This document shows, piece by piece, positions 42,445 to 52,160 of a DNA stretch of 64,000 nt; position 1 is the first letter of the stretch, and each line of letters opens with the position of its first letter. The stretch comes from Mycobacteroides immunogenum (GTDB lineage: Bacteria; Actinomycetota; Actinomycetes; Mycobacteriales; Mycobacteriaceae), in contig NZ_CP011530.1 of assembly GCF_001605725.1 (NCBI RefSeq), positions 4,960,001-5,024,000 on the forward strand, given 5' to 3'. A program made the translations under genes and the position numbers. The notes below the pieces were generated by a model that was not told where the DNA came from, ran no database searches, and worked only from the letters and a program-made list of their open reading frames with translations.

Positions 42445-43674
42445 CTACAAGTGCATCGCTGACAACTCAAGAGCCCACCACACTTCAAGTAGCACCTCGG
42501 TATCACCCAGGCTCGTCCCAGTCAGTTCTTCAAAACGGGCGATCCGATAGCGCACAGTGTTCTGGTGCACGAAGAGCCTTGTCGCCGTGCGCTCCACATG
42601 GAGCCCACACGCCAAGTAGGCGCGCAGCGTCGCAATGAGTTCACCGGCAGAGCTCGCCAACGAAAGCGGGTCAAGGTAACGTCGCCGGAGCAACTCGCCT
42701 ACTTCGAGGTCCAACGCGACGGTGGAGCGCAGGCCCAGCGCCGCGATGTCATAGGCCCCCTGCAGTCCACAAGCCTCGGCTGTCACCAAAGCACGTGCGG
42801 CTGATCGATATGATTCCGCAAGATGATCCAGCGGTCTGGGCGGACCATACCCAACGATTCCCTCGATATCCCTCGGGGGCAACTGACTCAGGAAGCCCGC
42901 GGCATTGCCATTGACCAGCGCACACAGCCCGCAGCGACCCGAAGTCAACTCGCCCAATCCCAGCGTCCGCTCGAGCTCGCGCTGAGTCAGGTTTGCCCCG
43001 AGACGACGGGCGCGCACCGCGACATAGTCGGCAGCCGGATCAAGCCCATAGATCTCGGCTTGAATTCGTAATTCGGCACGAGAGATCGTGCCCAACAACG
43101 CACCCCGAACAAAGTCCGCGTGGCCGTCGTCTTCCCTTCGGGCCTCGAGGCGATCGGCTCGCCGGTGAGCATCCGTGATCGTCGTTATGACCAGATCGGA
43201 CCGCGCCAGAACTGACTGGACGAACTCCAGCACCTGTCCCTCGGCGATACCCCGATCTTTACCTAAGCAGCGGGCATGCGCGACCAATGTTTCAATGCCG
43301 AGACGCCACGCGCGAAGCAGGTCACCAACAGGCACACCCTGCCTCGCGCGCGCTTCCCCCACCGCGCCGAGGGTCGCCTGCTCGTCGACAGTCAGTGCCC
43401 GCGTATCTCCGTCACATCGCAACACTGGCTCCAGCTCACGAGTGATCTCGAGATCCAGGGTCTCCGATGCCATCTCCCGATACACCGGGATCTCAGCCTG
43501 CACTGCGGTGCGGACCCGTTGAGCAAGCGCAACTTGATCGCTGAGCAACAGCGATACAACTTCGTCCGCGGTAGCGCGGCGCGATACCTGCAACGCACCA
43601 ACGCCGCTCCTCGGGCGAAGCCGGCCAACGGCCTCGTCCGTGCTGTACCAGGTGTTAGTCCCTGGGAAATTCAT
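42445..43674 (-). CDS. PucR/CdaR-family regulator
   Basis: A 409-residue regulator from ATG 43674. The N-terminal part is helical, the middle resembles the GGDEF-like domain of this family, and the C-terminus has the PucR helix-turn-helix: AYLACGLHVERTATRLFVHQNTVRYRIARFEELTG. Such proteins respond to a metabolite and activate neighbouring catabolic genes. It is separated from the LysR gene by a divergent 424-bp region, so it could control the peptide genes, the LysR gene or the oxidation cluster. Confidence 0.83.
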   Translation of the reverse strand: MNFPGTNTWYSTDEAVGRLRPRSGVGALQVSRRATADEVVSLLLSDQVALAQRVRTAVQAEIPVYREMASETLDLEITRELEPVLRCDGDTRALTVDEQATLGAVGEARARQGVPVGDLLRAWRLGIETLVAHARCLGKDRGIAEGQVLEFVQSVLARSDLVITTITDAHRRADRLEARREDDGHADFVRGALLGTISRAELRIQAEIYGLDPAADYVAVRARRLGANLTQRELERTLGLGELTSGRCGLCALVNGNAAGFLSQLPPRDIEGIVGYGPPRPLDHLAESYRSAARALVTAEACGLQGAYDIAALGLRSTVALDLEVGELLRRRYLDPLSLASSAGELIATLRAYLACGLHVERTATRLFVHQNTVRYRIARFEELTGTSLGDTEVLLEVWWALELSAMHL

Positions 43675-43762
43675 CTGACTCGTTCGGCAGAAAATCCGCG
43701 GCGGCCAGCACTCTCTGAGCGCGCGAATTGGCTTTGACGAGATCCGACTTGGTGAATGCCAT
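43655..43762 (-). CDS. Possible 35-residue leader ORF overlapping PucR start
   Basis: From ATG 43762 a short frame reads MAFTKSDLVKANSR, then AQRVLAAADF and a polar end, stopping 17 bp inside the PucR coding region. It looks more protein-like than the PucR frame upstream of 43674. It could be a coupled small protein or a chance frame; no strong ribosome-binding site is visible. Confidence 0.3.
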   Translation of the reverse strand: MAFTKSDLVKANSRAQRVLAAADFLPNESDEFPRD

Positions 43763-44098
43763 TGGCGAGCCACCGGCTTGTTTTGTACACACCACCCTCT
43801 TTTGATACACGATTTCCCCATGAAAGGCGCACCTGGAGAAGAGTATTCGTGTTTTCAATCAACACAATCGAAAAAACCTATCGTCGATAAGGGCGTGCCC
43901 GCGGTCAGATACGCTGTCCAACGATCGATCCCGCGCATCCGCGCCGCAACGGTCGCGTTCCCAAATTTGGCAATCGGCTGAGCCAATTTCAGGCAGCCAG
44001 ACGGGTGCTTCTCGACCTGATGAATGTGCAAGACTTATCCGCTATCTCGGCCTGTTTGCACAGCAGACCGGAAGGGCATGATGCGTAAGGAGGGGCCA
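43763..44098. other. Divergent control region between PucR and LysR genes
   Basis: No convincing gene. It is locally A/T-richer and contains the short palindrome TATCG-T-CGATA (43879-43889). Probably promoters for both regulators. Confidence 0.45.
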
Positions 44099-45037
44099 GT
44101 GCTGTTCCGGCAGCTGGAATACTTCATCTCAGTCGCCGAAGAACGGCACTTCGGTCGCGCAGCACAGAAGTGTCACGTCTCTCAACCGACGCTCTCTGCC
44201 TCGATCGCCAAGCTGGAACGTGAACTGGATGTCAAGCTCATCGAGCGCGGCCATAGCTTTGTTGGCCTCACGCCAGAGGGAGAGCGGTTGCTCACGTGGG
44301 CCAAGCAGATGCTTCGCGAACACGCGGCGCTGAAAGCAGAATTTTCCGCGATGCGATCCGGGATAGCGGGAACTCTTCGTCTGGGCACGATTCCGACGGC
44401 GTCGACCACATCATCGCTGGTACTGTCCGCGTTCTGCTCGCAGCACCCGATGGCGAAGGTACGAGTACGGTCCCAGCTGGCAACGTCCGAGTTGTACCAG
44501 TCTCTCAACGATTTCGAGCTCGATGCCGCGATCCTGCCCGTAATGCAGGACAAGACACAGGGTTTGGACTTCACCCCGCTGTATGAGGAGCGCTACGCGA
44601 TAATTTCTCCGGCTGCGCTGTTGCCGACAACCAGTGCAACCGCCTCGACCTTGCGGTGGGCCGACGCCGCGCGGCTCCCCTTAGCGCTACTCACGAACGA
44701 CATGCGAGTCCGCCAGATTATCGACGCCGCATTCGCCGGCGTCGGAATCACCGTGAGCCCGAAGGTCGAAACAGACTCCGTGAGCACGTTGTTGGCCCAG
44801 GCAGCCAGCGGCGATAGAGCCTGCATCGTGCCACACAACTGGCTATGGACCACCCTCATCAACGCGGAACTTCGCGCCCTGGAGTTGGTCGATCCCGTTG
44901 TGAAAACACCGATTGCGGTCGCCACCAAATCAAGCGGACACGTGCCGGCGATCGCCCAGGCTTTCGCCGAAAGCGCGAAACACCTTGCCCTTGACGATTT
45001 CTTCGCGAAACGGCTTGGAAACGTCTTCAATCCGTGA
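44099..45037 (+). CDS. LysR-family regulator, probable regulator of the oxidation cluster
   Basis: A 312-residue LysR protein. GTG 44099 is preferred because AAGGAGG ends 5 nt upstream. The helix-turn-helix is HFGRAAQKCHVSQPTLSASIAKLERELD; the effector domain contains RLGTIPTASTTSSLVL and IIDAAFAGVGITVSPKVETDSV. It is the first gene of the plus-strand run leading to formate dehydrogenase, catalase and the GMC enzyme. LysR genes of this type often stand near NAD-formate dehydrogenase genes. It is a candidate to bind the shared 28-nt motif upstream of the FDH and GMC genes. Confidence 0.83.
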   Translation: MLFRQLEYFISVAEERHFGRAAQKCHVSQPTLSASIAKLERELDVKLIERGHSFVGLTPEGERLLTWAKQMLREHAALKAEFSAMRSGIAGTLRLGTIPTASTTSSLVLSAFCSQHPMAKVRVRSQLATSELYQSLNDFELDAAILPVMQDKTQGLDFTPLYEERYAIISPAALLPTTSATASTLRWADAARLPLALLTNDMRVRQIIDAAFAGVGITVSPKVETDSVSTLLAQAASGDRACIVPHNWLWTTLINAELRALELVDPVVKTPIAVATKSSGHVPAIAQAFAESAKHLALDDFFAKRLGNVFNP

Positions 45038-46159: not shown

Positions 46160-46212
46160 CCGAGGGCACAACGTCGCACCGTTGTATTGCTCACCAAACA
46201 CAGTCCACTCAA

Positions 46213-46240
46213 TCTCGGAAGCTGCTCCATAGACACCGAA
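46213..46240 (+). promoter_or_regulatory. Conserved 28-nt motif upstream of formate dehydrogenase
   Basis: The core TGCTCCATAGACA-C-CGAA recurs upstream of the GMC gene at 49160-49187; 23 of 28 positions agree. It lies 106 bp before the FDH start, suggesting an activator site or a shared promoter region. Confidence 0.65.
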
Positions 46241-46345: not shown

Positions 46346-47500
46346 ATGGCCAAATGTGTGATGGTGCTGTATCCGGATCCACTCGATGGGTATCCGCCGA
46401 AATATGCTCGCGAGAGTATTCCGGTGATCGAATGCTACCCAGACGGCAGCTCTCTCCCGAGCCCGAGCGTGATCGACTTCAGACCTGGCGAGCTACTGGG
46501 GTGCGTCTCCGGGGCACTTGGACTTCGAAAGTTCTTTGCGGACGGCGGGCATGAGTTGGTAGTGACAGCCGACAAAGAAGGGCCTCACTCGGAGTTCGAA
46601 CATCATCTATCCGATGCGGATATCGTTATTTCACAACCATTTTGGCCCGCGTATCTCACCAAAGATCGTTTTGCCAGGGCACCCAAGCTCAAGCTGGCTT
46701 TGACTGCCGGTATCGGATCGGACCATGTTGATCTGGACGAAGCTCGAGCGCGCGGTGTCACCGTGGCCGAGGAAACATACAGCAACAGCATCAGCGTCGC
46801 CGAACACACGGTCATGCAGATTCTGGCGTTGGTAAGGAACTTTGTACCTGCCCACCGGTGGGCCGCAACGGGCGGGTGGAACATCGCCGATTGCGTTGCG
46901 CGCGCATATGACATCGAAGGCATGGACGTCGGGGTGATCGCCGCTGGGCGTATCGGTCGCGCGGTGCTGGAACGGTTGAGGCCATTCGGTGTCCGCCTGC
47001 ACTATTTCGATGTTCATCGCCTGCCCGCGGAGGTAGAAAGCGACCTGGGTGTGACCTACCACCCCGACGTGGAGTCATTGGCAGCCTCAGTGGACGTGGC
47101 TTCCATCCATTCGCCCCTGATCGCCCAGACCCACCACATGTTCAACGACAAGCTGCTCAAGTCGATGCGTAGGGGCTCATACATCGTCAATACCGCCCGC
47201 GCTCAGGAAACCGACCAGAAAGCCATTGTCGCGGCGCTCGAGAGCGGCCATCTTGCGGGCTACGCCGGAGATGTGTGGTACCCACAGCCCCCGTCACCGG
47301 ATCATCCGTGGCGGACGATGCCCAACAACGCTATGACTCCGCATGTTTCGGGCACCTCTCTCTCGGCGCAGGCGCGGTACGCCGCAGGAACCAGGGAGAT
47401 CCTCGAAGACTGGTTTGCCGGTAGACCCATCCGCTCGGAGTACTTGATCGTGGAGGGCGGGAGGTTCGCCGGGACCGGTGCGGTGTCCTACCAGCAATAG
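46346..47500 (+). CDS. fdh: NAD-dependent formate dehydrogenase
   Basis: This soluble enzyme oxidises formate to CO2 with NAD. ATG 46346 follows GGAGGAATTC and gives 384 residues. The match to the Pseudomonas/Mycobacterium vaccae type is clear: QPFWPAYLT, NSISVAEH, the NAD motif VGVIAAGRIGRAVLERL, the ribose-binding aspartate in HYFDVHRLP, catalytic Arg in NTARAQ, DVWYPQP with Gln, and His333 in MTPHVSGTSL. Compared with the Pseudomonas sp. 101 enzyme as I recall it, the two reactive cysteines are replaced by serine (S146 and S256), and three other cysteines are gone. No metal-dependent FDH subunits are nearby. Confidence 0.92.
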   Translation: MAKCVMVLYPDPLDGYPPKYARESIPVIECYPDGSSLPSPSVIDFRPGELLGCVSGALGLRKFFADGGHELVVTADKEGPHSEFEHHLSDADIVISQPFWPAYLTKDRFARAPKLKLALTAGIGSDHVDLDEARARGVTVAEETYSNSISVAEHTVMQILALVRNFVPAHRWAATGGWNIADCVARAYDIEGMDVGVIAAGRIGRAVLERLRPFGVRLHYFDVHRLPAEVESDLGVTYHPDVESLAASVDVASIHSPLIAQTHHMFNDKLLKSMRRGSYIVNTARAQETDQKAIVAALESGHLAGYAGDVWYPQPPSPDHPWRTMPNNAMTPHVSGTSLSAQARYAAGTREILEDWFAGRPIRSEYLIVEGGRFAGTGAVSYQQ

Positions 47501-47574
47501 CTGCACAAGCCCTATCCGCAAATGTACGTCAGCCCAATTGCCCAGAAGCACTTAAATACTGAGGAGATATCGAT

Positions 47575-49029
47575 ATGACAAGCAACAACTTCACCACCAC
47601 TGGAGCCGGTCGGCCGATTCCCAGCGATGAGTTGTCCTTGACATTGGGACCCGACGGACCGGTGTTGATGCAGGACTTCTACCTCATCGAGGCGCTCGCC
47701 GACTTCAACCGGGAACGGGTTGCCGAACGTCAGCCGCATGCCAAGGGTGCCGGCGCCTTTGGCCGCTTCGAAGTGACCAATGATGTCAGCGCCTACACCC
47801 GAGCGGCAGTGTTTCAGCCCGGCACTACCACCGAGGCATTCGTCCGGGTAGCCGGCAATGCCAGCGAGCGCGGCAGCGCCGATACGCTGCGCGACACCCG
47901 CGGATTTTCGGTCAAGTTCTATACCTCCGAAGGCAACTACGACATCGTCGGCAACAACGTTCCCATGTTCTTCATCAGAGATGCGATCAAATTTCCCAAC
48001 CTGATCCGCGCTTCCAAGCGTCGCGCCGACAACGACTGCCATGATCACAACATGGTCTGGGATTTTTGGACGTTGTCCCCCGAATCCGCCCACCTGGTGA
48101 CATTGGTAATGGGAGATCGAGGAATTCCCAAGACATTTCGCCACATGAATGGCTATGGCTTACACACATTCAGCTGGGTCAATGATGCCGGAGAGATAGT
48201 TTGGGTCAAGTACCACTTCAAGTCCGACCAAGGCGTGGAAAGCCTGACGCAGGAGGAAGCCGATCGCCTGGCCGGCACCGACCCCGACTGCAACATGCGA
48301 GACCTTCACGAAGCCATCGCGCGGGGCGAACACCCGAGCTGGTCGCTAAAGGTCCAGATCATGCCGTTCGAAGACGCAAAGACCTACCGTATCAACCCAT
48401 TTGATGTAACCAAGGTGTGGCCGCATGCCGACTACCCGCTGATCGACGTCGGCACGCTGACGTTGGACCGCAACATCACCGATCACCACACCGAGGTGGA
48501 GCAAGCAACGTTCACGCCGGCCAGCCTGGTGCCGGGAATCGGCCTGAGCCCGGACAGGCTCCTGCTAGGGCGCAGCTTTGCCTATGCCGACGCTCATCGG
48601 CACCGTGTTGGAGTCAACCACAATCAAATCCCGGTCAATGCCCCAAAGGTCGAGGTTCGCAGTTACACCAAGGACGGCGCTATGCGTTTCTACAACCGCA
48701 CCGATCCGGTGTACGTACCCAACTCCGTCGGCGGACCACAGGCGGATCCCGCTCGGGCCGCCGAAGTTCGTTGGGCCGCCGATGGCCACATGGTGCGCGC
48801 TGCGCAGACACTGCGCCCCGACGATGACGACTGGGGCCAGGCTCGAGACCTACTCCTGAACGTGATGAATGATGAAGAGCGGGAACGCCTGGTGCACAAC
48901 GTGGTTTTACACGTGAGCGATGGCGTGAAAGAGCCGGTCCTTTCCCGAGTTTTCGAGTACTGGAGAAACATCGATACTGCCACCGGCGACAAGATCGAGC
49001 GCGGCGTCCGCGCCGCGACAAATACGTAG
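47575..49029 (+). CDS. katA: Monofunctional heme catalase
   Basis: A 484-residue small-subunit (clade 3-type) catalase that decomposes H2O2. The distal histidine is in RQPHAKGAG (H55), the asparagine in the IVGNNVPMFFIRDA block and the heme-ligand tyrosine in SFAYADAHRHRVG (Y337). A GAGGAGA ribosome-binding site precedes the start. It is 74 bp downstream of formate dehydrogenase on the same strand, likely one transcript. No signal peptide. A strong hairpin follows the stop. Confidence 0.93.
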   Translation: MTSNNFTTTGAGRPIPSDELSLTLGPDGPVLMQDFYLIEALADFNRERVAERQPHAKGAGAFGRFEVTNDVSAYTRAAVFQPGTTTEAFVRVAGNASERGSADTLRDTRGFSVKFYTSEGNYDIVGNNVPMFFIRDAIKFPNLIRASKRRADNDCHDHNMVWDFWTLSPESAHLVTLVMGDRGIPKTFRHMNGYGLHTFSWVNDAGEIVWVKYHFKSDQGVESLTQEEADRLAGTDPDCNMRDLHEAIARGEHPSWSLKVQIMPFEDAKTYRINPFDVTKVWPHADYPLIDVGTLTLDRNITDHHTEVEQATFTPASLVPGIGLSPDRLLLGRSFAYADAHRHRVGVNHNQIPVNAPKVEVRSYTKDGAMRFYNRTDPVYVPNSVGGPQADPARAAEVRWAADGHMVRAAQTLRPDDDDWGQARDLLLNVMNDEERERLVHNVVLHVSDGVKEPVLSRVFEYWRNIDTATGDKIERGVRAATNT

Positions 49030-49054
49030 GAACATCCCCAACCCAGGCAGTAGA

Positions 49055-49097
49055 TCGACGCTGAGCTGGATGCGCCTAGCATTCGGCTCAGCGTCGA
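49055..49097. terminator. Terminator hairpin after catalase
   Basis: TCGACGCTGAGC (49055-49066) and GCTCAGCGTCGA (49086-49097) give a perfect 12-bp stem 25 bp beyond the catalase stop. It separates the FDH-catalase unit from the GMC unit. Confidence 0.75.
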
Positions 49098-49159
49098 AAT
49101 GGGCTGCTATCAGACCTATCCGAATTCCGTTGTACGGGACGCCAAGACGGTTCCAACTA

Positions 49160-49187
49160 TCTCAGAGCGTGCTCCATAGACATCGAA
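49160..49187 (+). promoter_or_regulatory. Conserved 28-nt motif upstream of the GMC gene
   Basis: The counterpart of 46213-46240, with core TGCTCCATAGACA-T-CGAA, 106 bp before the GMC start, the same distance as in the FDH case. The equal spacing supports a shared regulator. Confidence 0.65.
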
Positions 49188-49293
49188 TTTTGTTGGCACA
49201 AAACTAATTTGAGGGTCGGGATGCCGCACGCGTGAGGCCGGTGGTGTTGAACGACCCGGGCCCTGCTACACGCAACCTTTAGAGGAGGAACTC

Positions 49294-51030
49294 ATGGCCT
49301 ACGATCGATCTCACTTTGACTTCATTGTTGTTGGCGGTGGAACGGCAGGCAATGTCGTCGCCAGTCGACTCGCCGAAAACCCCAATGTCAGAGTCCTCAT
49401 TGTCGAAGCCGGCGTCGGAAATCCCTGGGATGTTGAGTTGGTCAGCACCCCGGGGCTGGCGATGGACATCCGCCACACCGAGAATGACTGGGACTACAGC
49501 GCCACGTTCGTGGACCGCGGCGTCTGGCGGCGCACCGACAAGAACTGCACTCGCGGTAGGGCTCTCGGTGGTAGCTCCGCCGGTAACTACTTCAGCTGGA
49601 TCCCCGGTTGCAAACCGACCTACGATCGGTGGGCCGAGTATGGCGGCCAGGAATGGACCTGGGAGCCTCTCCTTCCTTACCTACGCAAAAGCGCCACATA
49701 TCACGACGACGACGGAACGTTCCCTTCCGACCTGCACAAGATCGGCGTTGACGGTCCTCTCCCCATTTCTCACAACCTGATTCCCGAACTGAAGGCTTTC
49801 CGCGACGTGGTCACGCAGGCCTGGACGTCCCGGGGCTTGCCGCTTACCGACAACATCTTCGACGGCGAGATGAACGGCCTTACCCACGCGGTCAACAGCA
49901 TCTACAAAGGTGTGCGCTCGGGCAGTTACCTCTTCGTAAAGGGCAAGCCGAACATCACGATCCTCTCGGAGGTGCGCTCCAAACGCCTCATCATCGACTA
50001 CGCCACCCGTACGGCCAAGGGCGTGACAATCATCGACGGACTCGGCAACGAGCATGACTTTTACGCCACCCGGGAAGTCATTCTCTCCCAGGGCGTTTTC
50101 GAAAGCCCCAAGCTGTTGATGCTCAGCGGCATTGGCCCGGCCAAAGAGCTGGCCAAACATGGAATCCCGGTGATCGTCGATTCTCGGCACGTCGGCCAGC
50201 ACCTGCTCGACCACCCCGGCGTCCCGTTCGTGCTCCGCATCAAGGAGGGATACGCCCTGGACAGCACTCTGCTCCGCGATGGACCCAAGAAGGACGCAGC
50301 CATCGCCGCCTATCAGAAGGATCATTCGGGACCGCTCGGTTCGGGCTTCCTCGAGATGATTGGCTTCCCCCGCATCGACTCCTACCTGGAGAAGGACCCG
50401 ATTTATCGGGAGGCCAAGGCCGCCAATGGTGGGGTCGACCCCTTCTCGCCCGAGGGACAGCCGCACTTCGAACTCGATTTCGTCCCCGCATTCGGAAGTG
50501 CGTTCCAGTGGCAGTACCCGACCCCACCGGAGGGCGACCACGTCACCGTGATGGTCGATATCGTCCGCCCGACCTACGAGGGCGGGAACGTGACGCTCAA
50601 CAGCGTTGATCCGCTTGAACAACCCAACATCAAGCTGAACTACCTGTCCAACGAGCTCGACATCATTGGTCTGCGCGAAGGCGTCAGGTTCGCCTACGAC
50701 ATCTTGACCAAGGGCGACGGCTTCAAAGACATCGTCATCGACCAGTACCCCTGGGAAATGCCTCTTGAATCCGACGAGCTGATGCAAGCGTCTATTCAGG
50801 ACCGTGTCCAGACCTCGTACCACCCGTGCGGCACCAACCGGTTGTCCAAGAACATCGACCAGGGCGTCGTGGATCCCAAGCTGAAAGTCCATGGGGTGAA
50901 CAAGCTTCGCGTCATCGATGCGTCCGTCTTCCCGATCATTCCTGACTGCCGTATCCAAAACACCGTCTACATGGTCGGAGAGAAGGGCGCCGACCTGATC
51001 AAGGCTGATCACGCAGATCTCTACAAGTAG
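49294..51030 (+). CDS. GMC-family FAD oxidoreductase (alcohol oxidase-like)
   Basis: A 578-residue flavoenzyme after AGAGGAGGAACTC. It has the FAD motif GGGTAG (14-19), the first GMC signature GRALGGSSAGNYFSW, the second around GVFESPKLLMLSGIGP, and catalytic H510 (YHPCGTNRL) with N556 (CRIQNTVYM). The His-Asn pair is that of alcohol and cholesterol oxidases. The C-terminus GEKGADLIKADHADLYK is reminiscent of fungal GMC enzymes. It oxidises a primary alcohol to an aldehyde; if O2 is the acceptor it makes H2O2, which the neighbouring catalase and DyP enzyme would remove. No signal peptide. The substrate is not deducible; choline, methanol or aryl alcohols are all possible. Confidence 0.88.
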   Translation: MAYDRSHFDFIVVGGGTAGNVVASRLAENPNVRVLIVEAGVGNPWDVELVSTPGLAMDIRHTENDWDYSATFVDRGVWRRTDKNCTRGRALGGSSAGNYFSWIPGCKPTYDRWAEYGGQEWTWEPLLPYLRKSATYHDDDGTFPSDLHKIGVDGPLPISHNLIPELKAFRDVVTQAWTSRGLPLTDNIFDGEMNGLTHAVNSIYKGVRSGSYLFVKGKPNITILSEVRSKRLIIDYATRTAKGVTIIDGLGNEHDFYATREVILSQGVFESPKLLMLSGIGPAKELAKHGIPVIVDSRHVGQHLLDHPGVPFVLRIKEGYALDSTLLRDGPKKDAAIAAYQKDHSGPLGSGFLEMIGFPRIDSYLEKDPIYREAKAANGGVDPFSPEGQPHFELDFVPAFGSAFQWQYPTPPEGDHVTVMVDIVRPTYEGGNVTLNSVDPLEQPNIKLNYLSNELDIIGLREGVRFAYDILTKGDGFKDIVIDQYPWEMPLESDELMQASIQDRVQTSYHPCGTNRLSKNIDQGVVDPKLKVHGVNKLRVIDASVFPIIPDCRIQNTVYMVGEKGADLIKADHADLYK

Positions 51031-51086
51031 TGACCAGCCCAGCAGCGCATTCATAGCCGTCTAGGTGCACGGCGCTTGAGGTACTC

Positions 51087-51135
51087 CGGAGCTGGGCCAC
51101 GCTATCTCACGCAGATGACGTGTGGCCCAGCTCCG
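51087..51135. terminator. Terminator hairpin after the GMC gene
   Basis: CGGAGCTGGGCCA (51087-51099) and TGGCCCAGCTCCG (51123-51135) form a perfect 13-bp stem with a 23-nt loop between the GMC and DyP genes. It may cut transcription or attenuate read-through into the peroxidase. Confidence 0.65.
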
Positions 51136-51188
51136 CCGTATGCCGGGGCCGCGACACAAATCCAACGTCAAGAGAGAGTCCGATAACC

Positions 51189-52160
51189 ATGGCCATCGCT
51201 GCGCCGCAATCCATTGTCGCCCCACTTACTCCCGCCGCGATCTTCCTGGTGGCCACAGTCCGTCATGGCGGCGAAGCCGCAGTGCACAAGGCACTTTCGG
51301 AATTCTCCGGTCTGACGCGTTCCGTCGGATTTCGCGACCCAAGTAAACATCTTTCCGTGATCACCGCGATCGGTTCGGACGCGTGGGACCGACTGTTCTC
51401 GGGCCCACGCCCCGCCGAACTACACCCGTTCATCGCACTGGAAGGCCCCCGCCACACCGCGCCATCGACTCCGGGAGACCTTTTGTTCCATATCCGTGCG
51501 GAGTCGCTGGACGTATGTTTCGAGTTGGCGGATCGCATCGTCCAGTCAATGAGCGGCGCCGTGACCATTGTTGATGAGGTGCATGGCTTCCGGTTCTTCG
51601 ACAACCGGGACCTGATTGGATTTGTTGACGGAACCGAGAACCCCAGCGGAGCAGTGGCATTAAGCGCTACCTCCATTGGCGACGAAGATCCCGACTTCGC
51701 CGGTTCGTGCTATGTCCATGTTCAAAAGTACGTTCACGACATGAGTTCCTGGAACTCCCTGCCAGTGGCAGAACAAGAATGTGCGATCGGGCGCAGCAAG
51801 CTGGACAACATCGAGATGGACGACGACGCAAAACCCCCCAACGCCCACATCGCGCTGAACGCGATCACCGACGACAACGGCAACGAACTCAAAATCATTC
51901 GACACAACATGCCCTTCGGAGCCGTCGGTACGAGTGAATACGGCACCTACTTCATCGGGTACTCACGCACTCCCGCCATCACCGAGCGGATGCTTCGGAA
52001 CATGTTTCTGGGTGACCCACCAGGTAACACAGACCGCATCCTTGACTTTTCAAGGCCCGTCACGGGATCTATGTTCTTTTGCCCTACAGCAGAATTCATC
52101 GACAACCCACCGCCGCTACCGGCAGCGGTATCTACCCCAACGGCCCAGGCCGCGCGGTAG
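51189..52160 (+). CDS. DyP-type heme peroxidase (class B)
   Basis: A 323-residue peroxidase from ATG 51189. It has the GxxDG motif GFVDGTENP (D147), the proximal histidine H220 (NAHIALN) and R238/N240 in IIRHNMPFG; the spacings equal those of Rhodococcus DypB (153, 226, 244, 246). Class B enzymes use H2O2 to oxidise dyes, Mn(II) or lignin-like phenols. No signal peptide. No encapsulin gene is adjacent and the C-terminal tail (STPTAQAAR) does not look like a cargo peptide. It completes the peroxide-handling set of this block. Confidence 0.9.
   Translation: MAIAAPQSIVAPLTPAAIFLVATVRHGGEAAVHKALSEFSGLTRSVGFRDPSKHLSVITAIGSDAWDRLFSGPRPAELHPFIALEGPRHTAPSTPGDLLFHIRAESLDVCFELADRIVQSMSGAVTIVDEVHGFRFFDNRDLIGFVDGTENPSGAVALSATSIGDEDPDFAGSCYVHVQKYVHDMSSWNSLPVAEQECAIGRSKLDNIEMDDDAKPPNAHIALNAITDDNGNELKIIRHNMPFGAVGTSEYGTYFIGYSRTPAITERMLRNMFLGDPPGNTDRILDFSRPVTGSMFFCPTAEFIDNPPPLPAAVSTPTAQAAR

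What the first reader, a model, noticed from the sequence alone, without database searches (positions are those of the whole stretch)
46346..52160. Alcohol-oxidase-like GMC enzyme, catalase, DyP peroxidase and formate dehydrogenase as one module
Four enzymes lie on one strand: a likely H2O2 producer (GMC), two H2O2 consumers and an enzyme that removes formate. The set recalls the alcohol oxidase/catalase/formate dehydrogenase trio of methylotrophic yeast peroxisomes, with a DyP enzyme added. It may oxidise methanol or methoxy- or choline-derived alcohols to formate and CO2. The gene content is seen; the pathway is inferred. A formaldehyde dehydrogenase is missing from the block and would have to be encoded elsewhere, or the substrate is not C1.
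Basis: partly seen in the sequence, partly recalled or inferred. Interest (0 to 1): 0.8.

Follow-up and report, generated by a model that had tools for sequence, protein, structure and literature searches.

The report
Mycobacterial formate-burning gene cluster
The supposed alcohol oxidase is a close relative of a fungal enzyme that burns formate with oxygen, and in this mycobacterium it sits with a formate dehydrogenase and an unusual catalase behind matching control sites, so the block most likely disposes of formate rather than oxidising methanol.

Summary
The four genes are present as stated. The GMC enzyme (49294-51030) is not alcohol-oxidase-like: it is 66% identical to Aspergillus oryzae formate oxidase, keeps its R87, S94, H511 and R554, and its predicted fold matches formate oxidase (TM 0.96). 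Oxidase and dehydrogenase thus share one substrate, formate; no formaldehyde step is missing.

Of 396 mycobacterial genomes 10 have the oxidase. A distinct catalase clade occurs in 9 of these 10 and in 1 of 386 others; a distinct FDH clade in 7 of 10 and 1 of 386. Gene order varies. One palindromic motif occurs without mismatch only twice in the genome: before FDH-catalase and before the oxidase. It tracks a PucR regulator.

The linked catalases carry Asn instead of the channel valine (human Val116) in 14 of 14 rows. Passages of one paper call that valine invariant in catalases investigated before, and cite raised peroxidatic activity when yeast's is changed to Ala. A formate-burning enzyme pair is therefore testable.

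DyP is loosely attached: 2 of 12 oxidase loci, no motif, behind a hairpin. Activities are inferred, none measured. The direction of transfer between fungi and mycobacteria is unresolved.

The parts
42445..43821 (-). PucR-type regulator, probable regulator of the module
   Evidence: PF13556 HTH_30, 78 bits; PucR presence tracks motif A/B in 11 loci
44024..45037 (+). LysR-type regulator
   Evidence: PF00126 and PF03466; LysR genes, one or more, in 10 of the 11 loci compared
46182..46233 (+). operator-like motif before FDH: weak block A 46182-46200 (12 of 16), block B 46213-46233 (16 of 19)
46346..47500 (+). NAD-dependent formate dehydrogenase
   Evidence: NF005750 over cut-off; 590 bits to 7ya3; residues equivalent to I122, N146, D221, R284, Q313, H332 kept, R222 is V (residue list recalled)
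47575..49029 (+). small-subunit catalase with Asn95 in place of the channel valine
   Evidence: PF00199, 636 bits to 9t0l, Asn95
49055..49097 (+). hairpin, possible terminator after catalase
   Evidence: 19-nt arms; -45.4 kcal/mol for the surrounding 91 nt, z -5.9
49130..49180 (+). operator-like motif before formate oxidase: block A 49130-49148 (11 of 16, within chance), block B 49160-49180 (16 of 19)
49294..51030 (+). formate oxidase (GMC family)
   Evidence: 919 bits to 3q9t; residues; fold
51082..51140 (+). hairpin between formate oxidase and DyP, possible terminator
   Evidence: 19-nt arms; z -3.7
51189..52160 (+). DyP peroxidase related to encapsulin cargo, without targeting tail; accessory
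   Evidence: 564 bits to 9bkx; tail compared with the second DyP of the genome

Best explanation
The block is a formate-oxidation module. Formate oxidase passes electrons from formate to O2, giving CO2 and H2O2, through an FAD that, by analogy with the fungal enzyme, matures to 8-formyl-FAD. NAD-formate dehydrogenase takes formate to CO2 and NADH. The linked catalase removes the H2O2 and, as small-subunit catalases can, may spend part of it on a second formate. FDH-catalase and formate oxidase form two transcription units switched together by one operator, probably through PucR. No formate-tetrahydrofolate ligase was found in the genome, so oxidation is the likely sink for formate. DyP is an optional extra peroxidase. 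Shown: homology, catalytic residues, predicted fold, co-occurrence, shared motif. Inferred: activity, cofactor, transcription units, regulator, physiological role.
For: 919 bits and 66% identity to A. oryzae formate oxidase, next other GMC at 222 bits; R87, S94, H511, R554 in 127 of 127 homologue rows; AlphaFold model against 3q9t TM 0.96; FDH over its family cut-off; linked catalase and FDH clades co-occurring with the oxidase in shuffled orders; motif B exact only before FDH and the oxidase in the whole genome; no FTHFS.
Against: No activity measured. Of R87, S94, H511 and R554 only R554 differs from the genome's own GMC paralogue. G263 has the oxidase without linked catalase or FDH nearby; G141 and G212 have no NAD-FDH; G197 has FDH and catalase without oxidase. 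The pattern used was partly fitted to the window's own sites. Two related FDH-type enzymes (second NAD-FDH; MoCo enzymes) exist elsewhere in the genome or its kin, so the module is not the only conceivable formate sink.
Confidence: 0.8

Rival explanations
1. The module exists to make H2O2, for DyP or as a weapon, with formate only as fuel; catalase is self-protection.
For: Formate oxidase makes H2O2 (PMC11236828, introduction); DyP, a peroxidase, is next to it in the window and near it in G405.
Against: Linked catalase in 9 of 10 oxidase genomes, in tandem copies in four loci; DyP in 2 of 12 oxidase loci; no visible signal peptide on the oxidase N-terminus (by eye); shared control with FDH.
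Confidence: 0.12
2. The GMC enzyme has the formate oxidase fold but prefers another small oxoacid or aldehyde hydrate.
For: A third of positions differ from the fungal enzyme; L97 near the flavin is Gly or Ala in 9 of 10 mycobacterial genome rows including the window.
Against: R87, S94, H511 and R554 all kept; genomic link to two unrelated formate dehydrogenase types.
Confidence: 0.06
3. One reading: methanol, choline or aryl-alcohol oxidation ending in formate and CO2, like the yeast AOX/catalase/FDH trio.
For: GMC family membership; formaldehyde dehydrogenase MscR elsewhere in the genome; a zinc alcohol dehydrogenase about 2 kb downstream, 239 bits to TIGR03989 against a cut-off of 440.
Against: Pichia AOX1 100 bits against 919 and 20% identity in the structural match; Arg where the genome's GMC paralogue has His at the second catalytic position (the role of that pair is recalled).
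Confidence: 0.02

Closest known systems
Formate oxidase of Aspergillus oryzae RIB40 (3q9t, 5zu2, 5zu3)
   Same: 66% identity over 576 aligned positions; R87, S94, H511, R554; predicted fold TM 0.96
   Different: Bacterial; in a cluster with FDH and catalase; Gly in place of L97 in the window; cofactor and activity untested
AOX/catalase/FDH set of methylotrophic yeast peroxisomes
   Same: An O2-using GMC enzyme, a catalase and an NAD-formate dehydrogenase
   Different: The oxidase uses formate, the end of that pathway, not methanol; no compartment is evident
Small-subunit monofunctional catalases (9t0l, 1hbz)
   Same: Full-length match 636 and 561 bits, HAKG motif and FAY heme-tyrosine region
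   Different: Asn at the channel position that is Val in 20 of 20 other mycobacterial rows
Encapsulin-cargo DyP of mycobacteria (9bkx)
   Same: 564 bits over residues 4-321
   Different: No targeting tail and no encapsulin gene beside it; the genome's second DyP keeps the tail and has an encapsulin-like neighbour

Membership tests
Formate oxidase (GMC) | Full-length close relation to characterised formate oxidase | tested here: met
   919 bits, 66% identity; next GMC 222 bits
Formate oxidase (GMC) | R87 and S94, linked in print to 8-formyl-FAD formation | tested here: met
   127 of 127 rows, window R87 and S94; but the GMC paralogue of the genome has both too; paper passages
Formate oxidase (GMC) | H511 and R554 (the Arg replaces the second catalytic His/Asn of other GMCs; recalled) | tested here: met
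   window H510 and R553; the paralogue has H at the latter position
Formate oxidase (GMC) | Fold | tested here: met
   TM 0.96 to 3q9t; residues 91-95, which include S94, modelled at low confidence
Formate oxidase (GMC) | 8-formyl-FAD cofactor and formate-specific O2-dependent activity | not testable with these tools
   needs purified enzyme
Methanol/alcohol oxidase (AOX) | Closest to AOX sequences | tested here: not met
   AOX1 100 bits, 20% identity in the structural match
NAD-dependent formate dehydrogenase | Family cut-off | tested here: met
   NF005750 650 bits against 329
NAD-dependent formate dehydrogenase | Catalytic residues N146, R284, Q313, H332 and NAD-type D221 (recalled Pseudomonas numbering) | tested here: met
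   R222 is V
Monofunctional small-subunit catalase | Catalase family match and small subunit | tested here: met
   PF00199 571 bits, 484 aa
Monofunctional small-subunit catalase | Channel valine (human Val116) | tested here: not met
   Asn in 14 of 14 linked rows; described as invariant before, in passages of PMC8773446
DyP-type peroxidase | Family cut-off | tested here: met
   TIGR01413 286 bits against 100.5
Encapsulin-cargo DyP | C-terminal targeting tail and neighbouring encapsulin gene | tested here: not met
   Tail absent; the second DyP at 817911 ends in GSLSIGSLKGSLS beside an encapsulin-like ORF (encapsulin recognised by eye)
Yeast-type methanol dissimilation module | Methanol-oxidising first enzyme | tested here: not met
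   by sequence and fold only

The most novel reading that the evidence does not exclude
Formate oxidase and the Asn-gated catalase work as a two-stroke formate burner in the bacterial cytosol: the oxidase makes H2O2 from formate and O2, and the altered catalase spends that H2O2 on a second formate. Net: 2 HCOOH + O2 gives 2 CO2 + 2 H2O, without NAD; the catalase is in effect a formate peroxidase that evolved with its peroxide source.
Probability: 0.25. Interest if true: 0.78.

Novelty: new variant of a known kind. Interest (0 to 1): 0.62.

Why it matters
The formate oxidase with solved structures is fungal; a bacterial homologue in a regulated cluster gives the enzyme a physiological context that can be tested genetically. 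The linked catalase clade changes a residue described in print as invariant in the catalases investigated until then, beside a matching peroxide source, which makes the question of how the channel sets catalatic against peroxidatic activity directly testable. It also corrects a tempting methylotrophy annotation: one source names many of these proteins choline dehydrogenase.

Tried and rejected
Methanol or choline oxidation: rejected. DyP as a core member: weakened. Direction of transfer: trees rooted on distant GMCs placed mycobacteria inside fungi, a 27-row tree placed the 16 fungal rows as one clade; the outgroup branches are very long, so no direction is claimed. One search also had four mycobacterial rows translated on the wrong strand; corrected. 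Plasmid carriage: no match for the protein at 1e-60; for the DNA only short matches, 8% of the query or less. FDH as obligatory: not so. FDH-free loci as proof that oxidase plus catalase suffice: dropped after Mo-FDH-like genes appeared in the G141 locus and next to a linked-type catalase of G329. LysR as binder of motif B: possible (a site lies upstream of LysR in G070, read), but PucR fits presence and absence better (after the fact, Fisher p 0.006; for G361 and G212 this rests on motif A, as motif B scores only 12-13 of 19; PucR absence was judged inside 20-kb stretches). The 140-aa orphan was modelled, but its fold search never ran.

Rows dropped: the 'other' rows are those under 83% (FDH) or 73.5% (catalase) identity among the 30 loci fetched for each, plus two FDHs from elsewhere, so apartness is partly by selection; a linked-type catalase of G329 on contig C655 (77%) was in neither set. 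One search kept 14 cluster rows over 400 aa against 15 over 250 aa. One search used homologue rows of 550-620 aa only. Trees were made with the quick method.
Full report
WHAT IS THERE. The window lies in a mycobacterial genome of one 5.57-Mb contig; the nearest named locus found is in Mycolicibacter heraklionensis, 92% for the oxidase (records very near the window's own genome may be left out by that tool). The four ORFs are at the stated places on the + strand. Around them are a PucR-type regulator (42445-43821, -), a LysR regulator (44024-45037, +) and a DUF3558-like ORF just under its cut-off. Downstream follow LysG-like (over cut-off) and LysE-like genes. The stretch 42-52.2 kb has G+C 0.589 against 0.636 in the rest of the window.

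THE GMC ENZYME IS A FORMATE OXIDASE HOMOLOGUE. Against PDB sequences the three best hits are A. oryzae formate oxidase and two of its mutants (919-916 bits); aryl-alcohol oxidase follows at 222 and Pichia AOX1 scores 100 bits. Identity is 383 of 576 aligned positions. R87 and S94, which a paper describes as involved in 8-formyl-FAD formation (PMC11236828, passages and introduction), and H511 and R554 are kept in 127 of 127 homologue rows. The genome's own GMC paralogue at 307 kb also has R, S and H at the first three and differs only at 554, where it has His; so R554, the overall identity and the fold carry the assignment. The AlphaFold model matches 3q9t at TM 0.96, with AOX1 at 20% identity far below; residues 91-95, which include S94, are modelled at low confidence. 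Activity is inferred, not shown.

DISTRIBUTION. Formate oxidase at E<=1e-100: 2 of 61 relatives including the window's own genome, 10 of 396 genomes of the genus, 1 of 346 genomes of the phylum sample, that one being the window's own. A scan of 84,980 species with six short exact peptide patterns gave five loci, all mycobacterial; the patterns were strict, so distant copies would be missed. Among the proteins listed, those with organism names are mycobacterial or fungal (best 120 of 747 and of 773 shown; many are unnamed). The family is thus shared between the two groups, but rooting is unstable and I claim no direction.

THE MODULE RECURS IN SHUFFLED ORDER. Twelve oxidase loci were compared (the window and eleven others, two of them, L009 and G022, very alike). 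A linked-type catalase lies near the oxidase in 11 of 12 and a linked-type FDH in 9 of 12; order and strand vary, and G361 has FDH on the other strand. G141, G212, G329 and G361 have tandem catalases. Exceptions: G263 (oxidase on a 7.7-kb contig, no catalase or FDH there, and no catalase hit at 1e-150 in that genome), G141 and G212 (no NAD-FDH at 1e-110), and G197 (LysR-FDH-catalase without oxidase). Genome-wide, linked-type catalase (74% identity or more) occurs in 9 of 10 oxidase genomes and 1 of 386 others; linked-type FDH (84% or more) in 7 of 10 and 1 of 386; the one other is G197 in both cases. Linked FDHs (9 rows against 25) and linked catalases (15 rows against 20) each sit on one side of a branch, support 99 and 100 (selection caveat under Tried and rejected). 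In G141 and G329 a molybdopterin enzyme whose best family is Fdh-alpha (470 and 460 bits, below the cut-off of 666) lies in the oxidase locus or next to a linked-type catalase: a further, weaker link to formate.

SHARED CONTROL. I saw a palindromic motif by eye in the upstream regions. With the site before the G022 oxidase as seed, the two best sites of the whole 64-kb window on both strands are 46213 (133 bases before the FDH ATG) and 49160 (134 before the oxidase ATG), each 16 of 19 positions; the next are at 14. In the own genome an IUPAC form, partly fitted to these sites, has four matches within two mismatches; the two without mismatch are these. In 61 relatives the only other exact site is that of the G022 oxidase; matches within two mismatches number about as many as for the reversed control (130 against 118, my sum of the table). 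Of 11 loci, the eight with a PucR gene have motif A or B before the oxidase; of the three without, G084 and G141 lack both before the oxidase and carry a different motif C at 17-19 of 19, and G197, which has no oxidase, lacks both before FDH. For G212 and G361 motif B is weak and motif A decides. Motif A in the window itself is weak (12 and 11 of 16; random pieces reach 12). Hairpins after catalase and after the oxidase (z -5.9 and -3.7) suggest units FDH-catalase, oxidase, and DyP apart.

THE CATALASE IS UNUSUAL. In the RFSTVAGE motif the linked catalases have Asn at the Val position (window residue 95): 14 of 14 linked rows against 0 of 20 other mycobacterial rows; some linked rows have a one-residue insertion beside it. 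Among the 120 best homologues plus the query, 29 have Asn and 92 Val; in a 46-row subset the Asn rows are one side of a branch, support 100. One Asn row is named Malassezia and one Nocardia. [quoted passage not shown] coli HPII. The Val-Phe spacing of 37 in that paper's three pairs equals the spacing in 1hbz and in the window protein (counted by me), which supports the equivalence. PMC9687031 (passages) lists formic acid as a two-electron donor to Compound I of small-subunit catalases, at concentrations far above that of H2O2. The step from these facts to a formate peroxidase is a hypothesis (the section on the most novel reading).

SOURCE AND FATE OF FORMATE. A mycothiol-dependent formaldehyde dehydrogenase, over its cut-off, is encoded at 2018406; it yields formate by established knowledge. 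No formate-tetrahydrofolate ligase was found; the same search found it in 4 of 14 control genomes. A second NAD-FDH (74%) lies at 1065955. What supplies formate in nature is unknown.

DYP. The window DyP is 65% identical to the genome's other DyP, which keeps an encapsulin-type tail and has an encapsulin-like ORF beside it. The window copy and the G405 copy lack the tail. In G405 DyP is divergent from FDH, with the motif in the shared gap.

PRINT. Searches of the held open library: formate oxidase alone (42 papers, 30 listed), with mycobacteria (2, listing only), with formaldehyde and catalase (3, listing only), with 8-formyl/FAD/bacterial (17, 12 listed), and mycobacteria with FDH, catalase and GMC (1 paper, passages read, a different pathway). 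In these listings and passages I saw no bacterial cluster of this kind. One paper names 'formate oxidase' genes in Carbonactinospora and consortium partners, tied to CO dehydrogenase genes by annotation (PMC9977764, passages). Subscription literature was not searched.

Noticed in passing
L027:4904-5326 and six other formate-oxidase loci; not found in the window by tblastn: A conserved orphan protein of about 140 aa without a Pfam match; AlphaFold model pLDDT 80 from one of five models, the others near 50; its fold search did not run.
   Followed up: partly
L011:4703-5773 and four other formate-oxidase loci: A FUSC_2-type membrane protein (49 bits, cut-off 25.6) near the oxidase in 5 of the 11 loci; possibly an acid exporter.
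   Followed up: partly
L013:8201-11269: The formate oxidase gene of M. icosiumassiliensis is split by a 1347-base insert with transposase-like ORFs, IS3-like by eye.
   Followed up: partly
L116 (G405:93730) and L117 (G022:343955): Motif-B-like sites (1 and 2 mismatches) just by other PucR-like ORFs followed by an acyltransferase-like ORF, recognised by eye; this hints that PucR-family regulators bind the motif.
   Followed up: partly
L024:15160-17565 and L094:7253-9601: Molybdopterin enzymes best matching Fdh-alpha, below its cut-off, in the G141 oxidase locus and next to a linked-type catalase of G329.
   Followed up: partly
G022:C1:338221-340977: FdhA-like reading frame with one in-frame TGA, about 13 kb from the G022 oxidase; possibly a selenocysteine formate dehydrogenase.
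   Followed up: no
P0016: A protein record labelled Mycobacterium tuberculosis variant bovis is nearly identical to the G361 formate oxidase; the label may be wrong.
   Followed up: no
P0224: A catalase named Malassezia sp. carries the same channel Asn as the mycobacterial linked catalases, at 69% identity to the window protein.
   Followed up: partly
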